From Leptolyngbya sp. NIES-2104 (lineage in GTDB: Bacteria; Cyanobacteriota; Cyanobacteriia; Leptolyngbyales; Leptolyngbyaceae): a stretch of 64,000 nt of DNA. The position numbers and the translations under genes were made by a program. Positions 28,404-61,816 of this stretch are shown piece after piece. Location: the NCBI RefSeq assembly GCF_001485215.1, contig NZ_BBWW01000003.1:62001-126000 (forward strand), in the 5' to 3' direction. The notes under the pieces are model-generated. The model made no database searches, was not told where the DNA came from, and saw only the letters and a list, made by a program, of their open reading frames with translations. The stretch's first letter is position 1; each line of letters opens with the position of its first letter.

Positions 28404-28967
28404 ATGAAACAGTCAGCAGATTTCTTTGTTCGTAGCGCGATCGTGGAGACCACTCGATCCTACATGGGCAGTCTCATGTCTTTTCTTGTGACATCTGCCG
28501 AAACCGAAAACCGCTTCTTCCTTCTGGAGCTTCGGATGAAACCGGGAAATGAGCCGCCGCCCCATCTCCACTATGACCAGGATGAGGTGTATTACATTCT
28601 AGAAGGCGAACTGGAGGTGTACTGCATGGGCGAAGTCCGAACAGTGCGAGCAGGCGAAACGATCTTCCTCCCCCGGAATCAGGCGCACGCATTCTACTAC
28701 CTGTCGCCCACCCTCCGGTTCCTCGCTCTGTTGCAACCGGGCGGTCCGGACGGGTATGGTCTGGACGGTTACTTTGAAGCGATGTCGAGTCCGTCCACCA
28801 GCATGGAACTCCCTGAGAACGCAACCACATATGCACTCTCCGATCCAGCTAGCGCGATCGCGCTAGCTGCCAAGTACGGAGTCAAGCTGCTGACCCCGGA
28901 AGAAACAGCGCAACTGTTGCCCCACTACCCCGGCTTCGGAGTAACGCGAAAGAGCCAGAGTCATTAA
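28404..28967 (+). CDS. Cupin domain protein
   Basis: 187 aa from ATG at 28404, preceded by AGAGGT. Single cupin barrel with motif 1 PGNEPPPHLHYDQDEVYYIL (HxH...E) and motif 2 PRNQAHAFYYL, and a C-terminal tail ending LLPHYPGFGV. The metal ligands are present, so a mononuclear-metal enzyme or small-molecule binder is expected; the substrate is unknown. A close paralogue follows at once but is split by an insertion sequence. Confidence 0.85.
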   Translation: MKQSADFFVRSAIVETTRSYMGSLMSFLVTSAETENRFFLLELRMKPGNEPPPHLHYDQDEVYYILEGELEVYCMGEVRTVRAGETIFLPRNQAHAFYYLSPTLRFLALLQPGGPDGYGLDGYFEAMSSPSTSMELPENATTYALSDPASAIALAAKYGVKLLTPEETAQLLPHYPGFGVTRKSQSH

Positions 28968-29377
28968 CGGCTGCGTAAATTGGCAGAAGTTTTTGCAACA
29001 GAATTAGTCATTAAGGAGAATGATGAAACAAGTTCAATCGGCATCATTAAAAGCATACAAGCGCACCTCTACGCTCGACTCGTCCATGTTTTACATGGGA
29101 AGTCTCATGTCGTTCTTTGCCAAAGGCGAGGACACTGGAGGTCGCTTTGCCCTGATGGAATACCAGGCGAAACCTGGCAATGAACCGCCGCCTCATGTCC
29201 ATGACTGGGAGCATGAGTTGTATTACGTGCTTGAGGGCGAGATGGAGTTCTACTGCGAAGACAAGGTTTTAGTAGCACATGCAGGGGAAACAATCTTCTT
29301 ACCTCAAGGCAAGCCGCACGCTTTTTATATTCGCTCCCCGTACCTCCGAACATTGATCCTGGTTCAAGCGGTGGGTG

Positions 29378-30701
29378 GGGTATGTCAATAGTTTTGTGTC
29401 AAAGCTCAAAATTAGCAATTTAAACGATCGCCAAATTCAATGGCAAATCGATTCAAAGCAGGCTTCCAATTCGGAATTGGCATTGTCCACTTTTTTGCAA
29501 CGTTGTGCATTGCCAAATAGATCACTTTGAGCGCCGATTCATCGGTCGGAAAGGCACGATGATTTTTGATGACTTTTCTCAAGGTCATGTTCAATGATTC
29601 AATGGCGTTCGTGGTGTAGATGGCACGTCGAATCTCATCTGGGAAAGCAAAGAATGGAATCACGCGATTCCAGTGATTCATCCAAGAGCGACTGATAATC
29701 GGATACTGCTTGTCCCATTTTTCAGCAAATGCCACCAATTGCTCTTCTGCCTGCTCTTCGGTTGCTGAAGTATAAATCATCTCAAGTCAGCAGCGACCTG
29801 TTTGCGGTCTTTGTAGGAGACATAGGAGAGCGAATTTCGCACCATATGCACAATGCAAAGTTGCACCTGCGTTTTGGGAAACACCGCTTCGATGGCATCA
29901 AGAAACCCAGTCAGCCCGTCACAGCAAGCAATGAAAATATCTTTGAGTCCGCGTTGCTGCAACTCAGTCAGAATTGACAACCAGAACTTGGCAGATTCGT
30001 TCTGCGTCATCCACATGCCGAGTAGCTCCTTGTTGCCCGCCAAATTGACTCCCAAAGCTAAGTGAATCGCTTTGTTGATCACTCTGCCGTCTTGCCGCAC
30101 TTTGACCACAATCGCATCCAAGTAGACAATCGGGTACACCCGGTCAAGGGCGCGATTTTGCCAGAGTTTGCGTTCTTCTTCCACCGCATCGGTGACTTTA
30201 GAAATCAAGCCAGGAGACACGTCCACCCCATATAAATCTTGCAGTTGCGCTTGGATATCGCGCACACTCATGCCACGTGAATAGAGTGACAAGATCTTGC
30301 CATCGAAGCCGTCAAATCGGGTTTGCCCTTTTGCCACAATCACTGGCTCAAATGCGCCATTGCGGTCTCGCGGAATCGAGATTTCGGCTTGCCCAAACTC
30401 GCCCTTAATCGTCTTTTTGCTATGCCCGTTGCGACGATTACGAGCGACATCTTCTTCAACTAGCTCAGCCCGTTCTTCTTCCAAATGGTGCTCCATTTCC
30501 GCATTTAGACAACGTTCTACGAGCGCTGCTGTTAGCTGTTTGAGAATGCCTCCTTCTCCTACTAAATCTTCGGGACTTTGATAGTTTTTCAGCAATTCAT
30601 CGAGCAATTCAGGTCGGAATGTCATATGTGTTGTGTTTTTGGTTCAAGGGTCTATTAGATCAAACTTTGGAACCTTTGACACAAAACATTTTATAAACCC
30701 G
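29378..30701 (-). mobile_element. IS256-family insertion sequence, 1324 bp, with 8-bp target duplication
   Basis: Flanked by GGTGGGTG at 29370-29377 and 30702-30709. The ends are imperfect inverted repeats: both start GGGT and share TTTTGTGTCAAAG further in. Length, 8-base duplication and mutator-type transposase all fit IS256. It sits inside a cupin gene, antisense to it. Confidence 0.93.
29412..30625 (-). pseudogene. IS256-family (mutator) transposase, frameshifted
   Basis: The first part, 30625-29777 (282 aa), has the DDE acids in VYLDAIVVKVR and IACCDGLTGF and the motif CIVHMVRNS. The rest, 29780-29412, holds the third acid in TTNAIESLNMTLRK. The join reads DLR-stop in one frame and MIYTSATEEQ in the next, where the family has a continuous DLRxIYTSA. 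This is a -1 shift near 29778 with no slippery heptamer, so I call it a one-base deletion. The element is probably not autonomous now. Confidence 0.85.
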
Positions 30702-30907
30702 GTGGGTGAACACGCGGTTGGGCTGGATCGCTACTTCGTTGAAATGGCTGAACCTGCAACAAGCATGAATCTTTCCACTGAGGCGATTACTTATATGATG
30801 GACGATCCTAACCATGCTATCCGCTTGGGTGCTGCAAACGGTGTTCGTTTCTTGTCGCTGGAAGAAACCGCCAAAGAACTGCCGCACTACCCCGGCTTTG
30901 GAGTACG

Positions 30908-31210
30908 ATGAAAAGACGTAACTTCCTTGTTAGCAGCGCCCTAGCAAGCAATGGCCATCTAATGCAGTCAGCGTCAGGTAAAGCTTAACATGCAAGTGCT
31001 TGGCTTCTGTTATTTGCTACCAATACTTTCCACGAAGAGGAGACTATCCTCAATCAGGTTTTGCAACGCAACGATGAACTACTCAGAATTTGGAATGACG
31101 ACTTAAATCAAACAACAGAGTGTTCACATCACTAACTCTTCAACAAACAAGAGAAAGGATAACTTGCATACCAATGAGTTATTCAATCTGCAATATGGAA
31201 AGGAGAAATC
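30908..31210 (+). other. Spacer with a Tat-like N-terminal remnant
   Basis: An ATGA overlap with the cupin stop opens a 26-codon frame (30908-30988) that starts MKRRNFLVSSALAS. This resembles a twin-arginine leader and stops early. It may be the stub of an exported protein formerly co-translated with the cupin. The remainder to 31210 shows no gene. An AAAGGAG ribosome site for the next gene is at its end. Confidence 0.35.
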
Positions 31211-31991
31211 ATGACAACAATGTATGGTCAGAGCAATACTTTGTTCAAAGATCTCGCAGCACTACTTACAGGACAGCTTTTTCTACCGGATGACACTGCC
31301 TATGAACAGGTACGCCAACTCTGGAGTGGCAGGGCGAAGACTCAACCCGCTGCGCGCTGCTCCGCAGATACCGCAAGGGTCGCTCGTTGTTTGACTGTGC
31401 AAGAGTGCGCTTGACATGGGTGAGGCAGCGAGCACGTACCCGTGTAGCGAAGCTATCGCTCCCTTACGAACCTTTGGCAATCTGCTAGTCGATCAGGTGC
31501 AACCTGTCACGTATGATGCACTGATTCATTCTATTGATGCGTTTGCACCGCACGGTCTCCACTATTACATTCAAACGCGATCGTTCAAGGAGTTCCAGGC
31601 TGAGATGATTGAGACGCTGATCGAACAAGGACTGCCCCTTCCTACTCTGTTTTCGACGATCAACATTCATCACTTTCATGGAGTCGCAAGTCGTGTGGGT
31701 GTATCCGAAACTGCTTTTGCGCTGCGTCAGGATCACCTCATGATGGAGATCATCGCAGCCTGGAACCCTCAGTCTCCCGACGAGCAGCGGCATCTCCGAT
31801 GGGCACAGCACATCTCACAGGCACTTAAACCTTATGCCTTCAACGGAGGATATATCAACCTCTTGGATCAGGAAGAGCAGGAACAAGTTCCGCTCGCTTT
31901 CGGGTCGAACTATGAACGATTGCTTGACCTGAAACGGAGGTATGACTCAGAGGATGTCTTTGATTCGACGATCGGGCATATCGCACCCTAA
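31211..31991 (+). pseudogene. VAO/BBE-type FAD oxidoreductase with internal deletion
   Basis: The N-terminal 60 codons (DLAALLTGQLFLPDDTAYEQ to TARVARCLTVQE) and the C-terminal part from 31416 (EAIAPLRTFG to GHIAP, including the berberine-bridge tail YINLLDQEEQEQVPLAFGSN) match the copy at 53876. About 650 bases encoding most of the FAD-binding domain are missing. The scar at about 31405-31450 holds a short cyanobacterial palindromic element (GCGAGCACGTACC...). No active flavoenzyme can be made. Confidence 0.88.
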
Positions 31992-32023: not shown

Positions 32024-32404
32024 ATGTTAACTGAAACCACTGAATTTTGCTCTACAGACCTCGACAAAGAGATTGTTCATTTGCTCGATTATGCAAGAAC
32101 TAAGCTACTGACCCAGATGCCACGACAGCTAAAAATGACATCCTATCTGCGACTCTGTTGCCTCTCCATTCGCAAGCTGTGCCAGAAGCCGGAATTAGCA
32201 GGCAAATCTAACCTGAACGAGACATTGGATGGCTCCTATTCGCAGTTACTGCAAGCACTTTGTCATCACAATTCTGAATGGTGGAGTCATTGCTGGAGTA
32301 GTGATCGCGGCATCCTTAAATCTGATGATCCAGCGATCAACAAACTACTGCAACCGCTGGAGCATTTCGTCGAAACCTACACTTGCAAGTACTCAAGCAC
32401 GTAA
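32024..32404 (+). CDS. Hypothetical protein, helical with several cysteines
   Basis: 126 aa, family not recognised. Helical throughout, with a CCLS pair and a C-terminal WWSHCWSSDRGILKSD segment. It lies between the broken FAD oxidoreductase and the SDR gene on the same strand, 20 bases before the SDR start, which would fit co-transcription. No membrane segment or signal peptide. Confidence 0.45.
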   Translation: MLTETTEFCSTDLDKEIVHLLDYARTKLLTQMPRQLKMTSYLRLCCLSIRKLCQKPELAGKSNLNETLDGSYSQLLQALCHHNSEWWSHCWSSDRGILKSDDPAINKLLQPLEHFVETYTCKYSST

Positions 32405-32424
32405 GTATTGAAGAGGAATACATC

Positions 32425-33180
32425 ATGAAACTTGAAAATAAAGTGACTTTGATTACGGGAGCAACTTCGGGAATTGACAAGGCAACCGCTAAAGCATTCG
32501 GTGTTGCAGGAGCTAAGGTGGTTTTCTCAGGACGGCGCGAACCAGAAGGTAAAGCAACGGAAGCTCAGCTACGAGATGCTGGCGTTGACTGTTTATTTGT
32601 ACGATCGGATGTCTCGAACGAAGCCGAGATAAAAGCACTTGTGCAAACCACCGTCGAGAAGTTTGGAAAGCTCGATTATGCCTTCAACAACGCGAGCATA
32701 GAGGCACTTCCAAAACCCTTGCACGAGCAATCGATCGAAGATTTTGACGAACTGATGGCGATTAACACACGGGGACTGTTCTTGTGCATGAAATATGAGA
32801 TTCAGCAAATGCCGACTCAAGGAACTGGGGCGATTGTTAATACCTCCTCGTTAGGAGGGTTGATTGCGTTTCCAGGGGCATCTCCATGTGTCGCGAGTAA
32901 ACATGCAGTCATGGGATTGACACGAGCGGCAGCGTTGGACTATGCCAAGCAGGGCATTCGGATTAATGCGGTTACTCCCGGTGCTACTGCGACTGAGACG
33001 CTCGATCGTAGCCTTGATCGAATGGGTCTCACAGCTGATGATTTCGCATCTACGGTTCCAATGGGGCGCATCGGACGGGTAGAAGAAATTGCTCAAGCTG
33101 TCGTTTTTCTTTGCTCTGATGCTGCCAGCTACATCACTGGACAACCCTTAGTGATTGACGGTGGATTTACAGTAAGCTGA
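32425..33180 (+). CDS. SDR-family protein lacking the catalytic tyrosine
   Basis: 251 aa from ATG at 32425 (AAGAGGA upstream). Classical short-chain dehydrogenase fold with intact length and C-terminal VIDGGFTVS. However, three hallmark positions are changed: TGATSGI is followed by D18 instead of Gly, NNA by S91 instead of Gly, and the YxxxK site is C155-VAS-K159. The tyrosine that donates the proton is therefore missing. The frame is undamaged, so the protein may have become a non-catalytic binder or be at an early stage of decay. Confidence 0.85.
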   Translation: MKLENKVTLITGATSGIDKATAKAFGVAGAKVVFSGRREPEGKATEAQLRDAGVDCLFVRSDVSNEAEIKALVQTTVEKFGKLDYAFNNASIEALPKPLHEQSIEDFDELMAINTRGLFLCMKYEIQQMPTQGTGAIVNTSSLGGLIAFPGASPCVASKHAVMGLTRAAALDYAKQGIRINAVTPGATATETLDRSLDRMGLTADDFASTVPMGRIGRVEEIAQAVVFLCSDAASYITGQPLVIDGGFTVS

Positions 33181-33424: not shown

Positions 33425-34066
33425 ATGCAACTCCATAAACTCAGCGTTCGTATTCTTTTAGCAACTCTTGCCGTATCTGTGACGCAGTACGCGACCAGCA
33501 CGGATAAGCAATTGGCAACTCATGCTTTGACTACAGACAATTGGGTTGCTGAACAATCTGGGCTTCAAACCGCTCAGCTTCAGACCATCCAGCCCAAGCC
33601 ACCATCCAATCAAGCTAAACAAGCCTTTTTTAGTCATCCTCCCCGGATTCTTCGGGTTGCTGCCTCTGCAACCGGAGCCTTTGCATCCTCGACTTATGAA
33701 TTCACATTGACTGTCCCCAAAGATGCTGGACAACCGCTTAAAGCTGTAACGATCGCTCAAGCTGAAAATGTAGAAGTTGCCAAATTTGATGTTAGGAACA
33801 GTAAAGCTTCTCTCGGTGAGCGATTTGCAAGTAGGTCTGAAATTCGCTTAGCAAGCACTGGTGGACAACCCGCTCGTCCAGGTGAAATAACGCTTGTCTT
33901 TGATCAACCTGTGCAACCTGGTAGTACCGTCACAGTTGCACTAGCAGTTCAGCGGAACCCCAGTTGGGGCGGAGTGTACGAGTTTGGAGTGACTGTCTAT
34001 CCAATTGGAGAAAATGCACTAGGTCAGTTCTTGGGCTACCGACGCATTAACTTCTACAGCAGATAA
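33425..34066 (+). CDS. DUF2808 secreted protein
   Basis: 213 aa. The N-terminus (LHKLSVRILLATLAVSVTQY) is a likely signal peptide. The C-terminal two thirds are the DUF2808 domain: STYEFTLTVPKDAGQPLKAV, then GEITLVFDQPVQPGSTVTVA, then GGVYEFGVTVYP, ending LGYRRINFYSR. The family is found mainly in cyanobacteria and has no assigned function; a periplasmic or surface location is expected. AAGGAG lies before the ATG. Confidence 0.88.
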   Translation: MQLHKLSVRILLATLAVSVTQYATSTDKQLATHALTTDNWVAEQSGLQTAQLQTIQPKPPSNQAKQAFFSHPPRILRVAASATGAFASSTYEFTLTVPKDAGQPLKAVTIAQAENVEVAKFDVRNSKASLGERFASRSEIRLASTGGQPARPGEITLVFDQPVQPGSTVTVALAVQRNPSWGGVYEFGVTVYPIGENALGQFLGYRRINFYSR

Positions 34067-34094: not shown

Positions 34095-34565
34095 ATGCAA
34101 TCTTTCTGGCTTTTTGGTCCTTACCTCACCATCCTTGCCGATCGCACCACGACTGGAGGACAGTACGATCTCATTGAAGGTTACTTTCCACCTGGGTCTC
34201 AGACTCCTCCTTATCGCCACATGCGCTATTCTGAACAACTCTATGTGCTGGAAGGAGAACTCACGATTTGGTCAGGTGAGAACAAGGTTGTACTCACCAC
34301 AGGTGAAAACTTCTTGATTCCGGTTGGTACACCTCACGTTGTTGCTGCAATTGGTGATCAACCCGCTCGTGGATTGATCCTTGCTGCGCCCAGTGCTTTT
34401 GCTCGGTTAATTGAAGCAACAGGAACGCAGAATAAGGTAGAAACACCGGACATGGCGCTGTTCGATTGCCTTTGGCAACAGCGAAGCTCCCGCATTTCTG
34501 CCGAGATTGGCGACGAGATTTTGGGACCACCCGGAACCTTACCCTCCGCTGCTACAAAAGCTTAG
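34095..34565 (+). CDS. Cupin domain protein (small, divergent)
   Basis: 156 aa. Cupin fold with GYFPPGSQTPPYRHMRYSEQ, LYVLEGELTIW and VGTPHVVAAIG. Motif 1 reads YRHMRYSEQ, so only one of the two histidines of HxH remains. It is unlike the two cupins at 28-31 kb. It lies 29 bases after DUF2808 and 52 bases before the hydrolase, all on one strand. Substrate unknown. Confidence 0.75.
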   Translation: MQSFWLFGPYLTILADRTTTGGQYDLIEGYFPPGSQTPPYRHMRYSEQLYVLEGELTIWSGENKVVLTTGENFLIPVGTPHVVAAIGDQPARGLILAAPSAFARLIEATGTQNKVETPDMALFDCLWQQRSSRISAEIGDEILGPPGTLPSAATKA

Positions 34566-34616: not shown

Positions 34617-35324
34617 ATGTCCAAACCCTCGATCGTTCTGGTTCATGGTAGCTGGGCAGATGGTACATCCTGGCAGCATGTCATCTCACTGCTGATTCAG
34701 GATGGCTATCACGTAACCGCTGTGCAAAATCCGCTGATTTCTCTTCCAGATGATATTGCTATAACCAAGCGAGTGATTGATGCTCAACCGGGAGCTGTTG
34801 TTGCAGTGGGTCACTCCTACGGTGGAGCGGTAATCACAGGCGCAGCAGTTGGCAACCCGCAAGTGAAAGCCTTGGTTTACATTGCGGGTTGGGCATTGGC
34901 ACCAGGCGATAGCATTCGCCAGTTAATTAGCAAATATCCGCCCCCTCCACTGCTCACAGCAATTGTCCCAGATGCAGGTGGCTTCCTTTACATCGATCGT
35001 AAGAAGTTTCACGAGGTCTTTGCTCACGATGTATCGCCAGCCGAAGCACAGGTGCTAGCAGTCACACAAAAGCCTGCCGCCAGCATCACGTTTGAGCAAT
35101 CGGTGGAAAGCGCAGCTTGGCAGACTATTCCCTCATGGTATCTCTTAGCTCAGGAAGACCGAGCCATTCACCCTAAGCTTCAGCAATTCATGGCAAGCCG
35201 AATTGGTGCTAAGACAACTGAGCTTCAAGCCAGCCATGTGTCGTACATCTCCCATTCCAGAGAGGTTGCCAATTTGATTATTGAAGCAGCAAGCTCTGCT
35301 GTCGAGTCATCTCAACTTGTTTAA
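34617..35324 (+). CDS. Alpha/beta hydrolase
   Basis: 235 aa. Oxyanion loop VLVHGSWADGTSW, nucleophile elbow VGHSYGGAVITGAA (Ser near 67) and a C-terminal His in QASHVSYISH. The lid and length match small esterase-like hydrolases close to the salicylate esterase/methylesterase group. AAGGAG precedes the ATG. It is the intact relative of the frameshifted gene at 49915. Cytosolic, no leader. Confidence 0.87.
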   Translation: MSKPSIVLVHGSWADGTSWQHVISLLIQDGYHVTAVQNPLISLPDDIAITKRVIDAQPGAVVAVGHSYGGAVITGAAVGNPQVKALVYIAGWALAPGDSIRQLISKYPPPPLLTAIVPDAGGFLYIDRKKFHEVFAHDVSPAEAQVLAVTQKPAASITFEQSVESAAWQTIPSWYLLAQEDRAIHPKLQQFMASRIGAKTTELQASHVSYISHSREVANLIIEAASSAVESSQLV

Positions 35325-35344
35325 TTGATTTGGAGGAAAACAAG

Positions 35345-36034
35345 ATGAAAGTTTTAATTCGAGCGATCGTCAGTTTTTTCGTTTTCGTGGTGGATGGGGT
35401 GTACGGCAATCGTTCCTATGCTCGGTTTTATGTGCTAGAAACGATCGCGCGTGTGCCGTACTTCTCCTACCTATCTGTGCTGCATCTGTACGAAACGCTG
35501 GGTTACTGGCGCAAAGCAGACTGGTTAAAAGTTCACTTTGCTGAAACCTGGAACGAACTGCATCATCTATTAATCATGGAATCGCTCGGCGGCAATCGAC
35601 TGTGGATCGATCGCTTTGTAGCAGAACACATTGCAGTAGCATACTACTGGGTTGTCGTGCCACTCTACATGGTGTTACCCAAATATGCTTATTACTTGAT
35701 GGAACTGATCGAGAGCCACGCTTATCACACCTATGATGACTACTTGAACAACCATGAAGCAGCACTGAAAGAACAACCTGCTCCCCAAGTTGCGATCGAT
35801 TACTATCGAGATGGCGATTTATATATGTTTGAAGAATTCCAGACCACACCAGATTCTACCTTTCGCCGTCCTCATGTCGATACGCTCTATGACGTATTTG
35901 TGAACATTCGGGATGATGAGTGTGAACACGTGAAAACGATGGTGGCACTTCAGCAACCGGATGCGCGACTCACGTTCAAAAGTCCTCATACTCCCGTAAA
36001 AGTAGTTGCAACCAGCACAACTAACACAAATTGA
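35345..36034 (+). CDS. ptox: Plastoquinol terminal oxidase (alternative oxidase family)
   Basis: 229 aa from ATG at 35345 with GGAGG upstream. All six di-iron ligands of the AOX/PTOX family are visible: E32 (VLETIARVPYF), E71 and H74 (NELHHLLIMES), E123 (LIESHAYHTYDDY), E192 and H195 (DDECEHVKTM). The enzyme oxidises plastoquinol and reduces O2 to water at the membrane surface, relieving over-reduced photosynthetic electron transport. Its place in a redox gene run supports a stress role. A plasmid-borne copy is uncommon. Confidence 0.93.
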   Translation: MKVLIRAIVSFFVFVVDGVYGNRSYARFYVLETIARVPYFSYLSVLHLYETLGYWRKADWLKVHFAETWNELHHLLIMESLGGNRLWIDRFVAEHIAVAYYWVVVPLYMVLPKYAYYLMELIESHAYHTYDDYLNNHEAALKEQPAPQVAIDYYRDGDLYMFEEFQTTPDSTFRRPHVDTLYDVFVNIRDDECEHVKTMVALQQPDARLTFKSPHTPVKVVATSTTNTN

Positions 36035-49870: not shown

Positions 49871-49914
49871 TAACACTGATTATCTGGAGTCAACAACCAA
49901 ATGAGGATCACACG

Positions 49915-53323: not shown

Positions 53324-53800
53324 ATGACAATTTCAACTCAAACATCTTCAACTCTAGGCTCAAATCCTCTGAATTCGATGCAAATCGATCATGTTTGCTT
53401 GAATGTACCGAACTATGAGGAAACGCTTCAGTGGTATCAAGAAAAGCTAGATGCGACGATCGAGCGAGAATGGACATTTTTTGATGTCTTCCCCGACATG
53501 AAACTGGCTTATTTGCAAGTCTACGGATTTCGGATCGAAATTATCGGCAGCACTCAGTCACGCTCTGGGATGCCCGAAGCTAAAGACCTGGGTGAAGGAT
53601 TGCGCGCGAGTGGCATTGGACATTTTTGTTTCCGTGTTGATGACGTGGATGCGTTACTGGCTGAATTGAATCGACGGGGTGTGCCAACCTTTGTTGAATT
53701 GGGCAGCTACCCTGGTCCTGGAATTCGGCTCTGTTTGGTGAAGGACAATAACGGCAATCTCATTGAATTTGTCACTCCTTTGAAAGATTCTGCACAGTGA
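53324..53800 (+). CDS. VOC-family (glyoxalase/dioxygenase-fold) protein
   Basis: 158 aa. Paired beta-alpha-beta-beta-beta units: MQIDHVCLNVPNYEETLQWY in the first, GIGHFCFRVDDVDALLAELN in the second, and the C-terminal Glu in NNGNLIEFVTPL. Metal ligands H (IDHV), H (GHF) and E (IEF) are in the expected places, so it is probably an active metalloenzyme: glyoxalase, dioxygenase or a resistance protein. The substrate cannot be told from sequence. Confidence 0.87.
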   Translation: MTISTQTSSTLGSNPLNSMQIDHVCLNVPNYEETLQWYQEKLDATIEREWTFFDVFPDMKLAYLQVYGFRIEIIGSTQSRSGMPEAKDLGEGLRASGIGHFCFRVDDVDALLAELNRRGVPTFVELGSYPGPGIRLCLVKDNNGNLIEFVTPLKDSAQ

Positions 53801-55114
53801 TTCCTGGAGGAAATCCATCATGGCTCACGAGTCTACAAGACCTGCGATCGCCAATACCACTGAAAAGGAGAAATCATGACAACTACATACCGTCACAGTG
53901 CTGCTTTCAACGATCTCGCAGCACTGCTCACAGGACAGCTTTTTCTCCCTCAAGATGCTGATTATGAACCGGTGCGTCAACTCTGGAATGGCAAGGTGAA
54001 GACACAACCCGCTGCGCGCTGCTCCGCAGATACCGCAAGGGTCGCTCAGTGTCTCACGGTACAAGATGTGATTCATACGATTCGCTGGACACGATCGCAT
54101 AATCTACCTCTCTCGGTTCGAGGTGCTGGACATGAGATTTTTGGACGATCGCTGATCGAGAATGGTGTGGTGATCGATCTGTCCCAGATGCGAGCCGTCA
54201 CCGTTGACCCAGATACGCGCACAGCTCAGATTCAAGCTGGAGCAACAGCTAGCGACCTGATTGAAGCAGCACAGCAATACGGGTTAGCAACCGCCACAGG
54301 AACAATCTCTAGCGTGGGCATGACCGGACTGACTCTGGGGGGCAGCTATGGTCCTCTCAACGGTGCTTATGGACTGGCTGCTGATAATTTGCTGTCGGCA
54401 CAAGTGGTCACTGCTGATGGGCAGCTTATCACCGCAAACGCCGAGGAAAACGCCGACCTACTCTGGGGACTGCGCGGTGGTGGTGGCAATTTTGGTGTCG
54501 TTGTTTCCCTGGAGTTTCGCCTGCATCCGCTCACAACCGTGTTATCGGGTTTACTGCTCTATCCTTTGGAGCAGGTGAGAGAAGTGCTACACCGTTTCAA
54601 CGAGTTCATCGCAACAGCACCCGATGAATTGACAATTCGGTCTGGGTTCCTTCAGACACCCGATGGTCAGACGATGCTGTTTCTCTCACCCACCTACTGT
54701 GGTTCTATTGAAGCGGGTGAACAAGCTATCGCACCCCTGCGAACCTTTGGCACCGTACTGGTCGATCAGATGCAACCCATCTCGTATTACGAACTGATTC
54801 ACAGCCAAGATGCGTATACCCCGAAAGGTCGCCATGGCTACCTCCAAACCCGATCACTTCAAGGTCTACAAACAGAGACGATCGAGGCACTGATTGAACA
54901 GGGGCTACCATTACCCTCTCCATTCTCAGCGATTAACATCCATCACTTTCATGGGGCTGCAAGTCGCGTTGGTGTGTCCGAGACTGCTTTTGCACTGCGG
55001 CAGGATCATCTGATGGTTGAGCTAATTGCAGCTTGGGAGCCACAGGACGACGAGCAGCGGTATATCCAATGGGTACAGCACATCTCACAGGCACTAGCAC
55101 CCTACGCTTTCAAA

Positions 55115-56586
55115 CTACCCTGTACACACAACTCGGCTTAAACTACAAATGATCAAATTTCAGCGAGAAGACTAATGGAGAACCCAATTCTGATTCATGC
55201 TCGACAGACACGAGGAGCCGCATTTGGCGATGTGCGGTTGGAAAAAAGGGGGCGGCATTGTACGAATCGATGTGCGCCCACGAATCGGTGAACATCCGGC
55301 AGATTAGTGCAAGTCGAGCGGAACAGGTGGGATACTACCGATTTTTGGAGAATGAAGCGGTGAGTGTTGGAGAGTTAGTCAAAAGCCTTGCTGAACAGTG
55401 TGAGCAGCAAGTTGAAGGGCAGCATGTCCTCGCCATCAGTGACACGAGTGAGATTAACTTAAGCGCGAACGCGGGACGACTGAAACCCGATGACATCGGG
55501 TGGGTGGGCAATCACGAAGAACTCGGATTCTATATCCATCCGACCTTAGTGTTAAATGCGGGAAGTGGATTTCCACTCGGACTCAGTGCGGTGCAAGTCT
55601 GGCATCGTCCGACTGAACGACTCGATAAGCGCAGTCGCAAGTACAAACAGTTAGCGATTGAGGACAAGGAATCGTACAAGTGGGTCAAAGCCGCGACAGC
55701 AAGCAAGTCAGCGCTGCAAACTGCCACCGAGGTGACGGATATCGGCGACAGTGAATCCGATATCTATGAGGTGTGGAGTACGGTTACAACCGAAAAGACG
55801 CATTTGTTAATTCGGGCTTGCCAAGATCGCACCCTTGCGAATCAGGAGTTGATGTTGTTTGACTACTTGAGTCAGCAACCGTGTGAAGGCACGTACAATC
55901 TAAAGATTGCTGCTGATCCGCGACAAGGGCGCAAAGCGCGAGAAGCCTGGATCGCCGTGCGGTGTGCTTCGGTACATCTGCAACGACCTGCCCGATTACA
56001 CGGTAGCGAGTACCCACCTTCCACTCGCTTGTATGCGGTGGAAGCTCAAGAAATCCAACCGCCTGCTGGACAATCTGCTATCCACTGGCGCTTACTCACC
56101 ACGCATCCGGTGGTTTGCTTTGAGCAAGCCTTACAAATCATTGAGTGGTATCGGTGGCGCTGGTGGATTGAACAACTCTTTACGGTACTCAAACAACCCG
56201 GACTCCAGATCGAAGAGACTCAACTCGAATCGGGCAAAGCGATCCAGTGTTTGTGCGTGATGGCGCTCTCTGTGGCGCTGCGAGTGCTTCAGTTAGTCGA
56301 AGGTCGCCAAGACCAAACTCAGCCTGCTCATCGCGTACTGTCGGAGCCACAGCAGCAGTGTTTAGCTCAGATTGCACCCAAGCTTTCTGGACACACAGCC
56401 AAGCAGCAAAATCCGCATCCACCGATGACGCTGGCTTGGGCAGCGTGGTGCATTGCCCGTTTGGGAGGATGGTCAGGCTATCAAAGCCAGTCCCCGCCTG
56501 GAATTGCCACGATGCTACGCGGACTCCAACAGTTTGAATCGATTTTTCAAGGATGGAGGTTAGCACAAGATGTGTGTACAGGGTAG
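55115..56586 (+). mobile_element. IS4-family insertion sequence, 1472 bp, with 10-bp target duplication
   Basis: Perfect 16-base terminal inverted repeats CTACCCTGTACACACA (55115-55130, complement at 56571-56586). Target duplication CGCTTTCAAA at 55105-55114 and 56587-56596. The transposase stop codon TAG lies within the right repeat. Perfect ends suggest a recent arrival. Confidence 0.95.
55175..56586 (+). pseudogene. IS4-family transposase, frameshifted near the N-terminus
   Basis: ATG at 55175 opens MENPILIHARQTRGAAFGDV in frame 2. At the G-run 55248-55252 the protein moves to frame 1 and runs open from about 55255 to 56586 (over 440 aa). DDE residues: D in ISDTSEINLS, D in GDSESDIYE, and E in the YREK signature YRWRWWIEQLFTVLK. 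One missing G in the run, or -1 slippage there, explains the break. The main body alone could start at TTG 55258 or ATG 55270. Confidence 0.85.
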
Positions 56587-56781: not shown

Positions 56782-57534
56782 ATGTCACAAAAACTCTCAG
56801 GAAAAGTTGCCCTCGTTACGGGTGGCAACAGTGGTATTGGGCTTGCCACTGCTAAGCAATTTGTTGCCGAAGGTGCCTATGTCTTTATCACGGGTCGTCG
56901 TCAGACTGAACTGGATGCGGCTGTCAACGAGATTGGTAAGAACGTCATGGGCATTCAGGGCGATGTCTCAAATCTGGCAGACCTCGATCGACTTTACGCC
57001 ACGATCAAGCAAGAGCAAGGTCGCCTGGATGTAATCTTTGCGAATGCTGGCGTTGGACAACCCCTCCCGCTCGGATCGATCACCGAAGAACACTTTGATA
57101 AAACCTTCAACATCAATGTCAAAGGTCTACTTTTCACGGTGCAGAAGGCACTGCCGCTGATACCAGAAGGCGCTTCCATCATCTTGAATGCCTCAACTAA
57201 TTCCATCATGGGTACCCCAGCCTTCAGCGTGTATGGCGCGACTAAAGCTGCCGTGCGATCGTTTGCCCGCAGCTGGACACTCGACCTTAAAGACCGCAAA
57301 ATCCGGGTGAATGCGATCAGTCCTGGTGTCACTCCGACTCCTGGTTACGATCAATTTGGATTCAGTGAAGAGCAGGCGAAAGAATTTGTGGAGAGCCAAG
57401 CTAAAAATATTCCATTGGGACGAGTTGGTACGCCCGACGAGATCGCCAAAGCCGTTGTCTTTCTCGCTTCCGATGACAGCAGCTTTGTCAACGGCATTGA
57501 GCTATTCGTCGATGGTGGCATGGCACAAATCTAA
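56782..57534 (+). CDS. SDR-family oxidoreductase
   Basis: 250 aa. Classical short-chain dehydrogenase with every hallmark: TGGNSGIG near 13-20, NAG near 88, catalytic Ser ([11 protein letters not shown]), YGATK (Tyr and Lys), and the C-terminal [11 protein letters not shown]. The Arg pair in TGRRQTEL suggests NADP(H). AGGAG precedes the ATG. Contrast the SDR at 32425, which has lost these residues. Substrate unknown. Confidence 0.92.
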
Positions 57535-57593: not shown

Positions 57594-58427
57594 ATGCCTT
57601 ACGTTACTGTCGGTCAAGAAAATTCTGCAACGATTGATCTCTACTACGAAGATCTTGGGACAGGTCAACCGCTTGTTCTGATTCATGGATTTCCCCTCAA
57701 CGGTCATTCCTGGGAAAAACAGGTCTTAGTGCTGCTAAATGCGGGGTATCGAGTGATTACCTACGATCGCAGAGGATTTGGTGCTTCTAGCCAACCCTCA
57801 TTCGGCTATGACTACGATACCTTTGCAGCAGATTTGAACGTGCTGATAACCAAACTTGACTTGCATGACGCTGTGTTAGTCGGCTTCTCAATGGGAACAG
57901 GCGAAGTCACGCGCTATCTTGGCAAATATGGCTCAGAGCGGGTGCAGAAAGCCGTACTGATGGCTCCAGTGCCGCCCTTCCTACTGAAGACCGACGAGAA
58001 TCCTGAAGGTGTCGATCGAAGCGTTTTCGATGACATTATGAAAGCGATCATTGAAGACCGTCCCGCTTACTTTTCTGAATTTTTCAAAGCGTTCTTCAAT
58101 GTGGATGTGTTGCTGGGTAAGCGGATTAGCAATGAAGCAATTCAGGCAAGTTGGAATGTGGCGGTAGGGTCTTCTGCGAAAGCGACTTTAGATTGTGTCC
58201 CGTCCTGGCTCACCGATTTCCGCAATGATCTGCCCCGCATTGATGTTCCAACTCTGATCATTCATGGTGATGCCGATCGCATTTTGCCACTTGAGTCCAC
58301 CGCAGCAAGACTCCCGAAGCTGATTAAAAACAGTCAACTTGTGGTCATTCCTGACGGACCGCACGCTATTAACTGGACTCACGCTGATCAGGTCAATCCC
58401 TTGTTATTGAACTTTCTTCAGGGGTGA
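57594..58427 (+). CDS. Alpha/beta hydrolase, non-haem haloperoxidase/esterase type
   Basis: 277 aa. LVLIHGFPLNGHSWEKQVLV (oxyanion), YDRRGFGASSQP, nucleophile S99 in VGFSMGTGEVTRYL, acid in IIHGDADRILP and His in PDGPHAINWTH. This set is typical of the arylesterase/bromoperoxidase group, which hydrolyse esters and lactones and can also form peracids. TAGGAG before the ATG. Cytosolic. Confidence 0.9.
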   Translation: MPYVTVGQENSATIDLYYEDLGTGQPLVLIHGFPLNGHSWEKQVLVLLNAGYRVITYDRRGFGASSQPSFGYDYDTFAADLNVLITKLDLHDAVLVGFSMGTGEVTRYLGKYGSERVQKAVLMAPVPPFLLKTDENPEGVDRSVFDDIMKAIIEDRPAYFSEFFKAFFNVDVLLGKRISNEAIQASWNVAVGSSAKATLDCVPSWLTDFRNDLPRIDVPTLIIHGDADRILPLESTAARLPKLIKNSQLVVIPDGPHAINWTHADQVNPLLLNFLQG

Positions 58428-58465: not shown

Positions 58466-59431
58466 ATGTTTTCTAGACTGATGATAGCGGTTGCAACCAC
58501 AGTGCTAACGATTGTGACCTCTTGTCTTTTTCCAGCAGTATCATTGGGAAAAAGTGAGATCGCTCAAGTGCCAGGTGTCTATCCATTCAAGTTAGGTGAT
58601 TTCACAATTACAGTCCTGAGCGACGGCACACTCCCCCAGGATCTCCATACGCTGCTGTCGAATACGAACCCAACAGAAACCGATCGCCTGCTTCAGAAAA
58701 ACTTTCTGACTAATCCTGTCGAGGCATCGATTAATGCTTTCTTGATCGACACTGGAGATCGACAAGTACTCGTGGACACGGGAGCCGGAACCTTTTTTGG
58801 TCCAAAACTGGGCGGCAAGCTTCAAACATCGTTAAAGGCAGCAGGCTACACGCCTAACGAGATTGATGCAATCCTCCTGACTCATATTCATACGGATCAT
58901 AGTGGGGGGCTGGTCGAAGCGGGTCAACGGGTGTTTCCTGCCGCCACGCTCTATGTTGGCAAGCCAGATGTCGATTTCTGGTTTGATCGAGCGAATGCCA
59001 CGCGCTTCAACGTTGCCAAAAAGTACTTTGACGAAGCCGCGAAAACGGTCAAACCTTATTTAGATGCAGGCAAGGTGAAATCGTTTTCTGGCAAGACAGC
59101 CCTGCTACCGGGAATCACCGCGCATCCCACACCCGGACACACTCCTGGTCATAGCTGCTACGTGGCGGCAAGCAAGGGCGAGAGCATCGAGTTTTGGGGC
59201 GATATTGTTCACTTTGCTTCGGTACAATTTCCCAAGCCAGAAGTTACAGTTGCTTATGATGTCGATGCCAATGCTGCTGCGGCACAACGCAAAAAACAGT
59301 TTGCGAGAGCAGAAGCATCCCGAATTTTGATAGCAGGCGCACATTTGCCCTTTCCTGGCGTTGGACACCTTCGAGCAGCAGATCAAGGTTATGCCTGGGT
59401 GCCAGTGGATTACCGCTGGCGTGAACCCTAA
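58466..59431 (+). CDS. Exported MBL-fold metallo-hydrolase
   Basis: 321 aa with an N-terminal leader (MIAVATTVLTIVTSCLFPAV). Metallo-beta-lactamase motifs: H140-I-H142-T-D144-H145 (LTHIHTDHSGG), H225/H229 (PGHTPGHSC), D246 (WGDIVH) and a late His (AGAHLPFPGVGHL). This order matches the AHL-lactonase-like MBL group, but substrate cannot be assigned. A Cys near residue 20 could also mark a lipobox. Confidence 0.9.
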   Translation: MFSRLMIAVATTVLTIVTSCLFPAVSLGKSEIAQVPGVYPFKLGDFTITVLSDGTLPQDLHTLLSNTNPTETDRLLQKNFLTNPVEASINAFLIDTGDRQVLVDTGAGTFFGPKLGGKLQTSLKAAGYTPNEIDAILLTHIHTDHSGGLVEAGQRVFPAATLYVGKPDVDFWFDRANATRFNVAKKYFDEAAKTVKPYLDAGKVKSFSGKTALLPGITAHPTPGHTPGHSCYVAASKGESIEFWGDIVHFASVQFPKPEVTVAYDVDANAAAAQRKKQFARAEASRILIAGAHLPFPGVGHLRAADQGYAWVPVDYRWREP

Positions 59432-59511: not shown

Positions 59512-59913
59512 ATGAATCAGCCCAAGTTTTTTGTTACTCCCGGTTATGGCGAATACATGCTGAATGAATTGCATTTCTCGCAAGCCGTAAAAATTGGCGA
59601 TCGAGTGGAGACATCAGGACAAGGCGGCTGGGATGACGATCTACAAATTCCCGAATTGCTTGCGGACGAAATTGCTCAGGCATTTCGGAACGTAGAGCGA
59701 ACCTTGGCGACTGCTGATGCGGGTTGGGAGCATGTTGTCCACGTTAATTCTTACCATGTTGGCGGGTTTCCTTCGGAGGTTAACGATGTGATGGTCAAGC
59801 TATTTCGTCATTACATGCCTAACCACGCCCCAATTTGGACACAGGTAGGAGTTGCAGCGCTTGGACTCCCAACAATGCGGATTGAGATCCGCGTGACTGC
59901 AATCACGAGCTAA
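59512..59913 (+). CDS. RidA/YjgF-family protein
   Basis: 133 aa. RidA fold: HFSQAVKIGDRVETSGQGGW, AFRNVERTLATADAGWEHVV and the C-terminal MRIEIRVTAI, with the Arg that in RidA binds the carboxylate of reactive imines. Active members hydrolyse enamines and imines from PLP enzymes. Whether this one does is unproven. AAAGGA precedes the ATG. Confidence 0.88.
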   Translation: MNQPKFFVTPGYGEYMLNELHFSQAVKIGDRVETSGQGGWDDDLQIPELLADEIAQAFRNVERTLATADAGWEHVVHVNSYHVGGFPSEVNDVMVKLFRHYMPNHAPIWTQVGVAALGLPTMRIEIRVTAITS

Positions 59914-60083: not shown

Positions 60084-61049
60084 ATGGAGTACATGAAAGC
60101 TGCGGTACTGACCGCTTTTGGTAGCGCTGAGGTGTTTGAATTTCAAACCATCCCGAAGCCAGTTCCAAAAGCGACCCAAGTTCTGGTGAGAGTATATGCA
60201 ACCTCGCTCAATCCCATTGATTATCAAACTCGTCGAGGTGACTACAAAGATTTAGTTCGTCTCCCTGCAATTATCGGAGTGGACGTTTCGGGTGTGATTG
60301 AAGCGATTGGAGAGGCAGTCACCCATTTCCAGGTTGGAGATGAAGTTTACTACTCACCCCAGATTTTTGGCGAGTTTGGTAGTTATGCTCAATACCACGT
60401 TGAAGAGGAAAGCATTGTTGCAGTTAAGCCGATTAATTTGACCCATGTTGAGGCAGCTTGCTTGCCGTTGGCAGGAGGAACCGCCTGGGACTGCCTGATA
60501 ACCAGAGGAAATTTACAAGTCGGTGAGACGGTTCTCATTCATGCTGGAGCAGGTGGCGTTGGTTCGATCGCAATTCAACTGGCGAAAGCAATGGGTGCTT
60601 ATGTATTTACGACATGCAGTGCCGAAAACTTTGACTTCGTTAAGAAGCTGGGTGCAGACTATCCCATCGACTACAAGCATGAAAATTATATCGAAGTGAT
60701 TGGGCGAGAAACGAATGGTCGCGGTGTTGATTTGGTTTTAGACACAGTTGGCGGCGATACGATTGGACGTAGCTCAGAGGTGATTCGTCCATTTGGCAAA
60801 CTTGTCACAATCGTCGATATTGCAACTCCTCAAACACTGCTTGATGCTTGGGGTAAGAATTTGACGATTCACTTCGTGTTCAGCCCTCAGTATAGGGACA
60901 AATTGGACACACTGAGGAACCTGATAGAACGCGACCAGATTCGACCCGTCATTGATTCAGTTCTGCCTTGGAGCGACATCGTTCAAGCTCATCAACGTTT
61001 AGAAAAGGGAGGAATGCGAGGCAAGATTGTCCTGCAATTGACTGAGTGA
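60084..61049 (+). CDS. Zinc-free NADP-dependent alcohol dehydrogenase/quinone oxidoreductase
   Basis: 321 aa from ATG at 60084 with AAGGAGG upstream. MDR superfamily: GroES-like N-terminus (VRVYATSLNPIDYQTRRGDY, IIGVDVSGVIEAIGE), NADP fold with AGAGGVGSIAIQLAKAMG, and C-terminal GGMRGKIVLQ. It lacks the zinc cysteines, so it is a quinone- or enone-reductase type. It probably reduces reactive alpha,beta-unsaturated carbonyls or quinones. Confidence 0.9.
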   Translation: MEYMKAAVLTAFGSAEVFEFQTIPKPVPKATQVLVRVYATSLNPIDYQTRRGDYKDLVRLPAIIGVDVSGVIEAIGEAVTHFQVGDEVYYSPQIFGEFGSYAQYHVEEESIVAVKPINLTHVEAACLPLAGGTAWDCLITRGNLQVGETVLIHAGAGGVGSIAIQLAKAMGAYVFTTCSAENFDFVKKLGADYPIDYKHENYIEVIGRETNGRGVDLVLDTVGGDTIGRSSEVIRPFGKLVTIVDIATPQTLLDAWGKNLTIHFVFSPQYRDKLDTLRNLIERDQIRPVIDSVLPWSDIVQAHQRLEKGGMRGKIVLQLTE

Positions 61050-61067
61050 TAAAAACGCGCTGCTATT

Positions 61068-61142
61068 TTTCTATGTTCTGATGCTACGAGCTACATCACA
61101 GGTCAGTCTTTAGCAATCGATGGCGGACATACAGCGAGTTAG
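61068..61142 (+). pseudogene. C-terminal remnant of an SDR gene
   Basis: The frame FLCSDATSYITGQSLAIDGG then HTAS-stop matches the end of the SDR at 32425 (FLCSDAASYITGQPLVIDGG). Nothing upstream fits the rest of the gene. This shows that the SDR was duplicated within the run and then lost here. Confidence 0.7.
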
Positions 61143-61197
61143 CTTAAGTTGCTGGCTTACTGTCTAGATGGCAATTGAAATTTCTGGTTAAGGCAAT

Positions 61198-61816
61198 ATG
61201 GCAAGCATTCTGCATGTTGATCCAAGTCCACGGGGAGATCGCTCCAAATCTCGCCAGTTGGCAAAGAAGTTTATCGATGCGTGGCAAGACCTACATCGTG
61301 ATGACGTGATCACCTATCGTGATTTAAGACAAACGCCAGTTCCTCACGTCACCGAAGACTGGATTGCGGCTTCTTTTACTGCGCCAGAAGCACTGACTCC
61401 AGAAATGACTGAACTGCTGAAGTTTTCTGATGAGTTAGTGAATGAGTTTTTGGCAGCCGATCGGTGTGTTTTCAGTGTGCCAATGTACAACTTCAGCATT
61501 CCGTCCAATTTCAAAGCCTACATTGATCAAGTGGTTCGTGTGGGTCGCACATTCACGGAGGAAGATGGTCAAGTCAAAGGACTTGCGAACGGTAAAAAAG
61601 TGTTGTTCATCACCTCGCGAGGTGTTGAGTTTGAAGCAGGGTCTCCTTACGAAGGATGGGATAGTCAGGAACCTGCGCTCCGGTATGCTTTTCAATACAT
61701 CGGTGTGAGCGACATTCAGTTCATTCACGCCAATGGTCTAGATATGGGAGGAGGCGCGAAAACGGGGGCTAGACGAAGCACAATCTAAAATTCAAGCGCT
61801 AGTTAATGGCTGGTAG
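61198..61816 (+). pseudogene. FMN-dependent NADH:quinone reductase/azoreductase with 3' frameshift
   Basis: The protein is normal to about residue 190: ILHVDPSPRGDRSKSRQLAK, VPMYNFSIPSNFKAYIDQVV and FITSRGVEF. At the G-run 61764-61768 one extra G sends it to an early stop (61786-61788). With four G it would end LDEAQSKIQALVNGW at 61816. Only about 17 C-terminal residues change, so the protein may still fold. Azoreductases reduce quinones and azo compounds. Confidence 0.82.

What the first reader, a model, noticed from the sequence alone, without database searches (positions are those of the whole stretch)
28404..61816. A 33-kb same-strand run of small redox and hydrolase genes as one detoxification regulon
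About twenty families act on reactive organic molecules, quinones, epoxides, esters or imines. Several are present in two or more copies (cupin, FAD oxidoreductase, SDR, esterase, SnoaL). All point the same way and are mixed with AraC/LuxR remnants and the shared motif. This is the best candidate for an undescribed system in the window: a plasmid-borne, kinase-controlled chemical-defence or stress island that grows by duplication.
Basis: inference. Interest (0 to 1): 0.75.

Follow-up and report, generated by a model that had tools for sequence, protein, structure and literature searches.

The report
Cyanobacterial kinase-headed detoxification gene island
A cyanobacterial plasmid carries two back-to-back switchboards (a giant sensor kinase with its regulator), each followed by a one-way string of small redox and hydrolase genes, and the same arrangement recurs in other cyanobacteria with shared DNA control sites but varying cargo.

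Summary
In detail: 33 of 35 ORFs of at least 120 aa between 26.4 and 62 kb lie on one strand; the other two are one split transposase. It is not a local oddity. Of 80 HstK-type kinase loci from other genomes, 33 have a NarL-type regulator right after the kinase. Their downstream genes are mostly same-strand and rich in SDR, alpha/beta-hydrolase, SnoaL, cupin and quinone-reductase families; control kinase loci without the regulator are not. Two DNA elements recur. A 16-bp dyad lies mostly 174-199 nt before dsbA, sometimes before the kinase (probable regulator operator). A ~70-bp element lies before cargo genes in 13 of the 33 loci (probable AraC operator/promoter); in genomes without this regulator 5 of 10 sites directly follow a full-length AraC gene. 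'Grows by duplication' is not supported: the two regulatory heads fall in different clades, so the island grew by accretion, and it is decaying. The conserved 'DsbA' keeps CxxC in only 3 of 29 copies. Best reading: an undescribed, plasmid-prone family of two-tier regulated, variable-cargo islands acting on reactive organic compounds. Anatomy is well supported; inducer, binding and substrates are inferred.

The parts
15049..16834 (+). ParA and ParB (plasmid partition), upstream of the island
   Evidence: Pfam AAA_31, ParB_N
20470..26430 (+). kinA: Ser/Thr kinase + AAA_16 + GAF + PAS + HisKA_3/HATPase (HstK-type)
   Evidence: N-terminal 1500 aa 83% to L148/L149/L057, part after residue 1600 60% to L042
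26427..27054 (+). rrA: NarL-type response regulator in two frames
   Evidence: pieces 89% and 95% identical to the L112 regulator
27055..27070 (+). dyad CTGAACTTAAGTTCGG, candidate response-regulator operator, 178 nt before the dsbA1 match
27233..27841 (+). dsbA1: DsbA/thioredoxin_4-like, SPQC in place of CxxC
27959..28282 (+). short AraC (HTH only), ends about 11 aa before the end seen in relatives
28327..28383 (+). cargo element, upstream of cupin1
   Evidence: R1 E=7e-14
28404..28967 (+). cupin1
   Evidence: ORF from 28365
29020..30911 (+). cupin2 (29020-29391) and its tail (30633-30911), separated by a Mutator-type transposase on the - strand (29412-30625)
31211..31991 (+). FAD_binding_4/BBE oxidoreductase remnant (internal deletion relative to 53876-55141)
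32383..33180 (+). SDR1
33425..34066 (+). DUF2808 protein
34095..34565 (+). cupin3
34617..35324 (+). alpha/beta hydrolase abh1
35330..36034 (+). alternative oxidase (AOX)
   Evidence: Pfam PF01786 8e-33
37074..38026 (+). FAD/pyridine-nucleotide oxidoreductase in two pieces
   Evidence: both pieces match one gene in L148
38149..38200 (+). cargo element
   Evidence: R1 E=9e-12
38379..38789 (+). weak SLATT-like small protein
   Evidence: 23.5 bits, cut-off 41
38900..39907 (+). alpha/beta hydrolase, labelled epoxide-hydrolase-like by me
   Evidence: Abhydrolase_1
40006..42018 (+). two adjacent ORFs in one frame: a first piece without Pfam match, then PETase/chlorophyllase-like hydrolase
42070..42136 (+). 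cargo element upstream of kinB
   Evidence: R1 E=1e-9
42284..48202 (+). kinB: intact HstK-type kinase with HisKA_3
48202..48840 (+). rrB: intact NarL/LuxR-type response regulator
48870..48885 (+). degenerate dyad ACCCACCAGAGTGGGA near the place where relatives have theirs
   Evidence: read from sequence; not a hit
49025..49651 (+). dsbA2: DsbA-like, CSVS in place of CxxC
49849..50735 (+). abh2, split into two frames (49849-50481, 50457-50735)
50809..51537 (+). abh3
51690..52277 (+). SnoaL-like
52400..53068 (+). nqo1: Flavodoxin_2, NAD(P)H oxidoreductase/KefF-like
53324..53800 (+). glyoxalase-superfamily protein
53876..55141 (+). FAD_binding_4 oxidoreductase; a sequence matching its end lies beyond a transposase gene (55258-56586) at 56588-56746
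56782..57534 (+). SDR2
57594..58427 (+). abh4
58466..59431 (+). metallo-beta-lactamase fold, AidB-lactonase-like (196 bits, cut-off 360)
59512..59913 (+). RidA family
60084..61049 (+). zinc-ADH, PIG3-type quinone reductase-like
61198..61788 (+). nqo2: Flavodoxin_2, azoreductase-like
61901..61995 (+). AraC 3' end remnant
   Evidence: 80% to 28222-28316; AraC-tail score 122 against a 99th-percentile control of 32
61984..62050 (+). cargo element after the AraC remnant
   Evidence: R1 E=6.5e-9

Best explanation
The region is a mosaic of two copies, from different lineages, of a recurrent cyanobacterial regulatory island. Each has a head (HstK-type Ser/Thr-His kinase, NarL-type response regulator, DsbA-like protein, in part of the islands a short HTH-only AraC) followed by a variable, mostly same-strand set of small redox and hydrolase genes. 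Proposed working: GAF/PAS-sensing kinase -> phosphorylated RR binds the AACT-N2-AGTT dyad before dsbA and, in some islands, before the kinase gene (induction of the head, autoregulation) -> the short, MarA/SoxS-sized AraC made from the same unit binds the ~70-bp element before cargo genes and switches on broad-specificity enzymes that reduce, hydrolyse or open reactive carbonyls, quinones, epoxides and esters. The cargo units derive at least in part from stand-alone [AraC - element - enzyme] modules that still exist on chromosomes. SHOWN by sequence: recurrence, same-strand order, both elements and their positions, AraC-element linkage, different ancestry of the two heads, loss of CxxC. INFERRED: which protein binds which element, activation rather than repression, inducer, detoxification.
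For: Recurrence: 33 of 80 kinase loci have the RR directly after the kinase and 27 of those 33 the DsbA-like gene; the contigs of L037, L039, L040 end within 0.9 kb of the RR. Search with another query: RR at E<=1e-75 in 17 of 386 phylum genomes; comparing the lists by hand, 18 of its 24 places have a same-strand DsbA within 15 kb downstream (some genomes overlap the first set). Cargo: of 149 downstream ORFs from 21 loci SDR 30, Abhydrolase_1 16, SnoaL_2 14, Rce1/CAAX 9, zinc-ADH 8, cupin_2 7, GMC 5, and intradiol dioxygenase, MOSC, pirin, RidA, glyoxalase 3 each; none of these is among the 25 families shown for 111 control ORFs, a list that ends at 2 members. Cargo element: 22 sites in 13 of 33 RR loci, 0 in the 47 other kinase loci; in the own genome 7 sites at E<=1.3e-5, 5 on this contig and 2 on the chromosome; 29 of 54 distinct sites follow AraC C-terminal coding within 220 nt; 5 of 10 sites in four genomes without the RR (at E<=1e-75) directly follow a full-length AraC gene; self-match peak at 21 nt; no RNA fold. 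Dyad: 55 in 957 kb, in 35 of 41 RR loci, versus 1 in 836 kb of the 47 other kinase loci; within 400 nt before dsbA in 29 of 35 loci, and 9 dyads before a kinase.
Against: No expression, binding or phenotype data. 20 of the 33 RR loci have no cargo element in the sequence held, and only 10 of 33 have the short AraC family; the other head lineages (L042, L050, L055, L056, L058, L076, L090, L112, L146, L150, L152) have neither, so the AraC tier is not general. In L041, L057 and L102 the dyad stays after the RR while dsbA lies nearly 1 kb on. In the window the short AraC lacks its last ~11 residues, rrA is frameshifted and the module B dyad is degenerate, so the window copy may be partly dead; an intact 118-aa AraC exists in a third, damaged copy on the same contig (L154). 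25 of 54 element sites have no AraC tail upstream. Several cargo genes (DUF2808, AOX, SLATT-like, CAAX proteases) do not fit simple detoxification. One plasmid (L150) has contractile-injection genes after the head and a cupin. L112 is mixed: its DsbA and RR side with module A, its kinase C-terminus with module B. kinA's C-terminus is a long branch (0.69) whose place the program calls unsure.
Confidence: 0.57

Rival explanations
1. The response regulator alone is the master: it binds both elements, or transcription runs through from the head, and the AraC genes beside the elements are decaying passengers.
For: The RR is in every island of the set by definition, the short AraC family in only 10 of 33; in the window AraC is truncated; islands of the other head lineages have the RR and mostly the dyad but no AraC or cargo element.
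Against: The cargo element occurs at E<=1e-9 in genomes without this RR at E<=1e-75 (G070, G076, G093, G296), where 5 of 10 sites directly follow a full-length AraC gene; dyad and cargo element share no sequence by eye.
Confidence: 0.2
2. The cargo is a catabolic or biosynthetic pathway (aromatics, terpenoid or oxylipin tailoring) rather than a stress response.
For: Intradiol dioxygenases, GMC oxidoreductases, SDRs and SnoaL recur, and an acyltransferase lies beside one element.
Against: Gene content changes from island to island with no fixed series of steps seen; repeated SDR, hydrolase and SnoaL genes within one island; stand-alone [AraC-element-enzyme] units on chromosomes.
Confidence: 0.2
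3. The same-strand run is a neutral accumulation zone of the plasmid: degraded regulators and enzymes trapped by transposons, without common function.
For: Two transposase genes, at least six broken genes, remnants of AraC and SDR.
Against: Relatives in many genera keep the same head, cargo families, strand order and positioned DNA elements.
Confidence: 0.1
4. The ~70-bp element is a recombination site by which cargo units are captured, as in integron cassettes, not a promoter.
For: It lies between genes, in several copies in some islands, and accompanies cargo that differs between islands.
Against: No conserved fold; its strand follows the gene after it, also for - strand genes; it often follows an AraC stop.
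Confidence: 0.07

Closest known systems
HstK-type dual Ser/Thr-His kinases of cyanobacteria (Alr2258; Pkn40/Pkn41 named beside it), PMC2176072 (passages read)
   Same: Protein kinase and histidine kinase in one polypeptide with a GAF sensor.
   Different: Here the kinase carries a HisKA_3 output and is followed by a NarL-type RR, a DsbA-like gene and cargo; the passages read do not mention such neighbours.
MarA/SoxS/Rob regulon (short AraC activators; regulon recalled)
   Same: HTH-only AraC with sequence similarity to MarA, Rob and SoxS; probably many small stress genes under a shared site.
   Different: Sits under a two-component head (recalled: MarR or SoxR in E. coli); the element is longer, with a 21-nt periodicity, and often lies right after an AraC gene.
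ECF41 sigma factors and their COE genes (PMC3426412, passages read)
   Same: A regulator linked to carboxymuconolactone decarboxylase, oxidoreductase or epimerase genes with a shared promoter motif.
   Different: ECF41 is described as controlling one neighbouring gene or operon; here a two-component/AraC head precedes many genes.
XylS/Pm (PMC5481539, passages read)
   Same: AraC-family activator on two direct repeats near a promoter.
   Different: Answers to benzoates on a catabolic plasmid; a kinase head is not part of the system as described in the passages read.

Membership tests
HstK-type dual kinase | Pkinase domain and histidine-kinase (HisKA + HATPase) domain in one protein | tested here: met
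   kinA and kinB: Pkinase, AAA_16, GAF, PAS, HisKA_3, HATPase_c
NarL/LuxR-type response regulator | Receiver plus GerE HTH in one protein | tested here: met
   rrB Response_reg and GerE; rrA has both but in two frames
DsbA thiol oxidoreductase | CxxC active site | tested here: not met
   Of 29 rows 3 keep both Cys (L038, L050, L055), 18 only the first, 2 only the second, 6 none; window copies SPQC and CSVS. DsbA-like family only; a monothiol activity is not excluded.
MarA/SoxS-type AraC activator | Stand-alone AraC HTH domain without a second domain | tested here: met
   L154 copy, 118 aa, only HTH_18/HTH_AraC; 11 family members of 75-163 aa as called; PDB matches include MarA, Rob, SoxS. Window copy lacks the last ~11 residues.
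MarA/SoxS-type AraC activator | Activates a set of stress genes from a shared binding site | not testable with these tools
   Element-AraC linkage is circumstantial
ECF41/COE system | ECF41 sigma factor beside the enzyme genes | tested here: not met
   No sigma-factor family match except weak region-4 HTH matches to the RRs among window ORFs scanned with Pfam; a SigJ gene is annotated near the L151 island
Integron gene-cassette array | Folded attC sites between cassettes | tested here: not met
   Element alignment has no predicted pairs
Integron gene-cassette array | Integron integrase | tested here: inconclusive
   A phage-integrase-family gene at 17204-18205 was not typed further
Anti-phage defence system (PADLOC) | Defence-family match beyond a kinase or HTH domain | tested here: not met
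   7 proteins tested: kinB's shown matches lie in its kinase domain (PD-T4-6 types and others; 25 of 34 shown), rrB matches weakly through its HTH, 5 have none
Detoxification/stress regulon | Genes induced together by reactive compounds and protective | not testable with these tools
   No expression data available here

The most novel reading that the evidence does not exclude
A mobile, plug-and-play chemical-defence platform of cyanobacteria: a conserved sensor head (dual kinase, regulator, and a DsbA-like protein without its dithiol as a possible sensor or adaptor) captures ready-made [AraC - operator - enzyme] modules from chromosomes and rewires them under one short AraC, so that each plasmid carries a different detoxification repertoire with the same control logic.
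Probability: 0.33. Interest if true: 0.78.

Novelty: new variant of a known kind. Interest (0 to 1): 0.62.

Why it matters
Large cyanobacterial plasmids hold many unexplained redox and hydrolase genes. This gives a defined, recurrent unit with two predicted operators, so that a regulon can be listed from sequence and tested in named strains (Trichormus variabilis ATCC 29413, Oscillatoria nigro-viridis PCC 7112, Gloeocapsopsis dulcis). It would also give a dual Ser/Thr-His kinase a concrete regulator, operator and target set, and raises the question why a DsbA-like protein that has mostly lost its CxxC is kept beside the regulator.

Tried and rejected
Tandem duplication: rejected, the two heads fall in different clades (DsbA: module A in a 5-row group 100/99, module B in a 19-row group 97/99; kinase C-terminus: 11 against 27 rows, 100/100); kinA is moreover chimeric by identity. 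Caveat: the kinA C-terminus is a long branch.

Known RNA element: no Rfam match in the window at gathering threshold; RNA fold of the element: none. Defence system: no match beyond kinase and HTH domains in the rows shown. Transfer of cargo judged from identity alone (much cargo 85-96%, kinase about 60-79% in most islands): not claimed, since sensor kinases may simply evolve faster; cargo trees were not built.

Exact-motif search of the own genome with the window's core motif gave only two hits, both in the window; the profile found seven, so the first impression that the motif is window-only was wrong.

Literature: six PMC full-text searches aimed at this cluster or its kinase listed no paper describing it; I judged by titles and abstract starts and opened passages of PMC2176072 alone from those lists. 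Searches looked for comparison systems. The library holds no preprints and few subscription papers.

Controls and their limits: strand and cargo controls are 28 of the 47 kinase loci without the RR (diverged kinases with at least 5 kb downstream); 111 of their 183 ORFs were given to Pfam, and the table shows only the top 25 families. Of the islands' 223 ORFs, 149 were given (21 loci, + strand, DsbA left out). The 47 include short contigs with high-identity kinases whose RR may lie beyond the contig (L052, L053, L088, L104). The element model was trained on 28 sites of islands incl. two in the window, so matches there are by construction; independent are the hits outside.
Full report
WHAT IS THERE. 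The window is bases 62001-126000 of a 263,280-base contig (C3) of a 6.4 Mb genome in 5 contigs, the main one 5.7 Mb. ParA/ParB genes at 15049-16834, a phage-integrase-family gene and a type I restriction system lie upstream, so C3 is probably a plasmid. From 20.5 to 62 kb there are two successive units. Unit A: kinA, rrA (frameshifted), dsbA1, a short AraC, then cupins, SDR, hydrolases, alternative oxidase and others. Unit B: kinB, rrB, dsbA2, then hydrolases, SnoaL, quinone reductases, glyoxalase, FAD oxidoreductase, SDR, lactonase-like protein, RidA and zinc-ADH. Of 35 ORFs of at least 120 aa between 26.4 and 62 kb, 33 are on the + strand and the other two are the parts of one transposase.

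RECURRENCE. A pattern scan of the species-genome collection with kinB gave 84 relatives, 80 kept. 33 have a response regulator (above 150 bits) directly after the kinase; 27 of these 33 have the DsbA-like gene and 10 the short AraC family. After the regulator, 196 of 223 ORFs of at least 120 aa are on the kinase strand; in 28 control loci (diverged kinases without the regulator) 78 of 183. Pfam on 149 of the 223 ORFs: SDR 30, Abhydrolase_1 16, SnoaL_2 14, CAAX protease 9, zinc-ADH 8, cupin 7, GMC 5, and intradiol dioxygenase, MOSC, pirin, RidA, glyoxalase 3 each. For 111 of the 183 control ORFs none of these is among the 25 families shown, whose last entries have 2 members; so SDR, for one, is at most 2 there.

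PLASMIDS. In the plasmid collection the regulator is at 60-80% identity in 14 of 105 matching records, all 14 cyanobacterial; seven of the 14 were opened. Five show kinase, regulator, DsbA (annotated or by tblastn) and redox/hydrolase cargo; no kinase gene is annotated before the regulator, though a kinase C-terminus match is there, and the cargo is present; the head and a cupin are followed by contractile-injection genes. A further record at 56% identity has another kinase and no such cargo after the regulator, though redox genes lie before the kinase, mostly on the other strand. Trichormus plasmid C and the Gloeocapsopsis plasmid also have ParA/ParB within about 10 kb of the kinase.

SECOND SAMPLE. 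In 386 genomes of the phylum the regulator occurs at E<=1e-75 in 17 (14 of 143 genera), the DsbA-like protein at E<=1e-20 in 18. Comparing the two lists by hand, 18 of 24 regulator places have a same-strand DsbA within 15 kb downstream; six do not. Some genomes are the same as in the first sample. Several islands are on main contigs, so the unit is plasmid-prone, not plasmid-bound.

ELEMENT 1, THE RR DYAD. Soon after the regulator's stop lies TCTAACTTAAGTTAGA or a variant (TCCAACT..AGTTGGA, CTGAACTTAAGTTCGG) whose arms change together. With at least two of three flanking pairs kept there are 55 in 957 kb, in 35 of 41 island loci (33 plus 7 plasmid records plus the window), and 1 in the 836 kb of the 47 other kinase loci. 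In 29 of 35 loci with a DsbA gene a dyad lies within 400 nt before the DsbA match (30 dyads, 22 of them at 174-199 nt), also where dsbA is 1-7 kb from the regulator (L044, L045, L051, L060, L115, L147, L076); nine dyads lie before the kinase; 16 are elsewhere, many right after the regulator. Against a strict link: in L041, L057 and L102 dsbA has moved nearly 1 kb without a dyad of its own. This fits an autoregulatory operator of the NarL-type regulator (inference). In the window it is at 27055 for unit A; unit B has a degenerate form at 48870.

ELEMENT 2, THE CARGO ELEMENT. An iterated profile gave 37 sites at E<=0.01; in the 80 kinase loci there are 22 in 13 of the 33 island loci and none in the other 47; 20 island loci show none. 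It lies mostly between genes, and its strand follows the next gene, also for - strand genes in L049, L057 and L154; it can precede the kinase (L047, L054, window kinB). Self-match of the alignment is highest at a shift of 21 nt (0.50; 20 and 22 give 0.32; the next best, 12, gives 0.44), as expected of two direct repeats on one face of the helix; XylS, an AraC-family activator, binds two direct repeats at Pm (PMC5481539, passages). It has no conserved fold. In the own genome the model finds seven sites at E<=1.3e-5: four in the window, one in a third damaged copy at 220 kb of C3, and two on the chromosome.

WHO BINDS ELEMENT 2. Four genomes with the element at E<=1e-9 but without the regulator at E<=1e-75 (G070, G076, G093, G296) hold 10 sites in the stretches fetched; five directly follow a full-length AraC gene (about 300 aa) and precede a hydrolase, a SnoaL or a TetR-CAAX unit. 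On the own chromosome both sites lie at the end of an AraC gene. Of 54 distinct sites, 29 have AraC C-terminal coding within 220 nt upstream (above the 99th percentile of 400 random segments), including remnants such as 61901-61995 of the window; 25 do not. The simplest reading is an ancestral [AraC - operator/promoter - enzyme] module, collected into islands where AraC was cut to its HTH domain or lost. Of 14 short AraC rows read, 10 share a start like MLTITTPTLEFK, so the short form looks like a real gene form; its solved relatives include AraC, MarA, Rob and SoxS. The window copy ends early; an intact 118-aa copy is at L154:15260-15616, next to a pirin gene, with luciferase-like monooxygenase, CAAX protease, hydrolase and a weak SnoaL piece.

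ORIGIN. The heads of units A and B are not sisters. DsbA: module A groups with L112, L042, L090, L152 (100/99), module B falls in a 19-row group (97/99). Kinase C-terminus: 11 against 27 rows (100/100), with kinA a long branch. The rrA pieces are 89% and 95% identical to the L112 regulator against 60% and 66% to rrB; kinA has an N-terminus close to L148/L149 and a C-terminus closest to L042. So accretion and recombination, not tandem duplication. L112 itself is mixed (DsbA and RR with A, kinase C-terminus with B). The trees mix distant groups (a Gloeobacterales bin beside Nostocaceae), in line with transfer.

DsbA-LIKE PROTEIN. Of 29 rows, 3 keep CxxC, 18 keep only the first Cys, 2 only the second, 6 neither. 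It sits at the best-supported dyad, yet most copies cannot be dithiol oxidases; a sensor or adaptor role is a guess and a monothiol activity is open.

MECHANISM AND LIMITS. Kinase -> RR -> dyad (dsbA and following AraC; sometimes the kinase) -> short AraC -> element 2 -> enzymes is the model. Shown: order, recurrence, elements, linkage. Inferred: binding, activation, signal, detoxification. Islands of the other head lineages lack AraC and element 2, so for them the second tier must differ. Expression was not tested. Known relatives: HstK kinases (PMC2176072, passages), ECF41/COE systems (PMC3426412, passages), MarA/SoxS (regulon recalled). Six literature searches listed no paper describing this unit.

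Noticed in passing
L150 (Nostoc sp. UHCC 0926 plasmid pn3), 22118-36636: The same kinase-RR-DsbA-cupin head is followed a few kb later by contractile-injection (phage-tail-like) genes on the same strand; the first of them matches Pvc16_N.
   Followed up: partly
L157:5022-17400 (own chromosome): A different GAF/PAS HisKA_3 kinase with an RR 56% identical to rrB, followed on the same strand by genes resembling GMC, porin, flavodoxin-type, SDR x3, glyoxalase and a hydrolase; no cargo element or dyad found: possible chromosomal cousin.
   Followed up: partly
L154:10345-16282: Third, damaged copy of the unit on the same contig: DsbA in two frames, intact 118-aa AraC, element, pirin, luciferase-like monooxygenase, CAAX protease, hydrolase, SnoaL-like piece.
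   Followed up: partly
window 3818-14682: Type I restriction genes (HsdR, HsdS, HsdM) with a YhcG/DUF1016 nuclease beside the island; a second ORF at 11143-12198 clusters with the nuclease.
   Followed up: no
window 35330-36034: Alternative oxidase gene inside the island.
   Followed up: no
L223:6176-7507: PapA/condensation-type acyltransferase next to a weak cargo element.
   Followed up: no
L148, L149, L225 upstream of the kinase: Divergent genes before the kinase that recur in some of these loci: DUF5996, UBP zinc finger, monooxygenase, isochorismatase-type hydrolase, WD40 protein; L057 (same contig as L225) has the cargo element before its divergent quinone-reductase-like gene.
   Followed up: no
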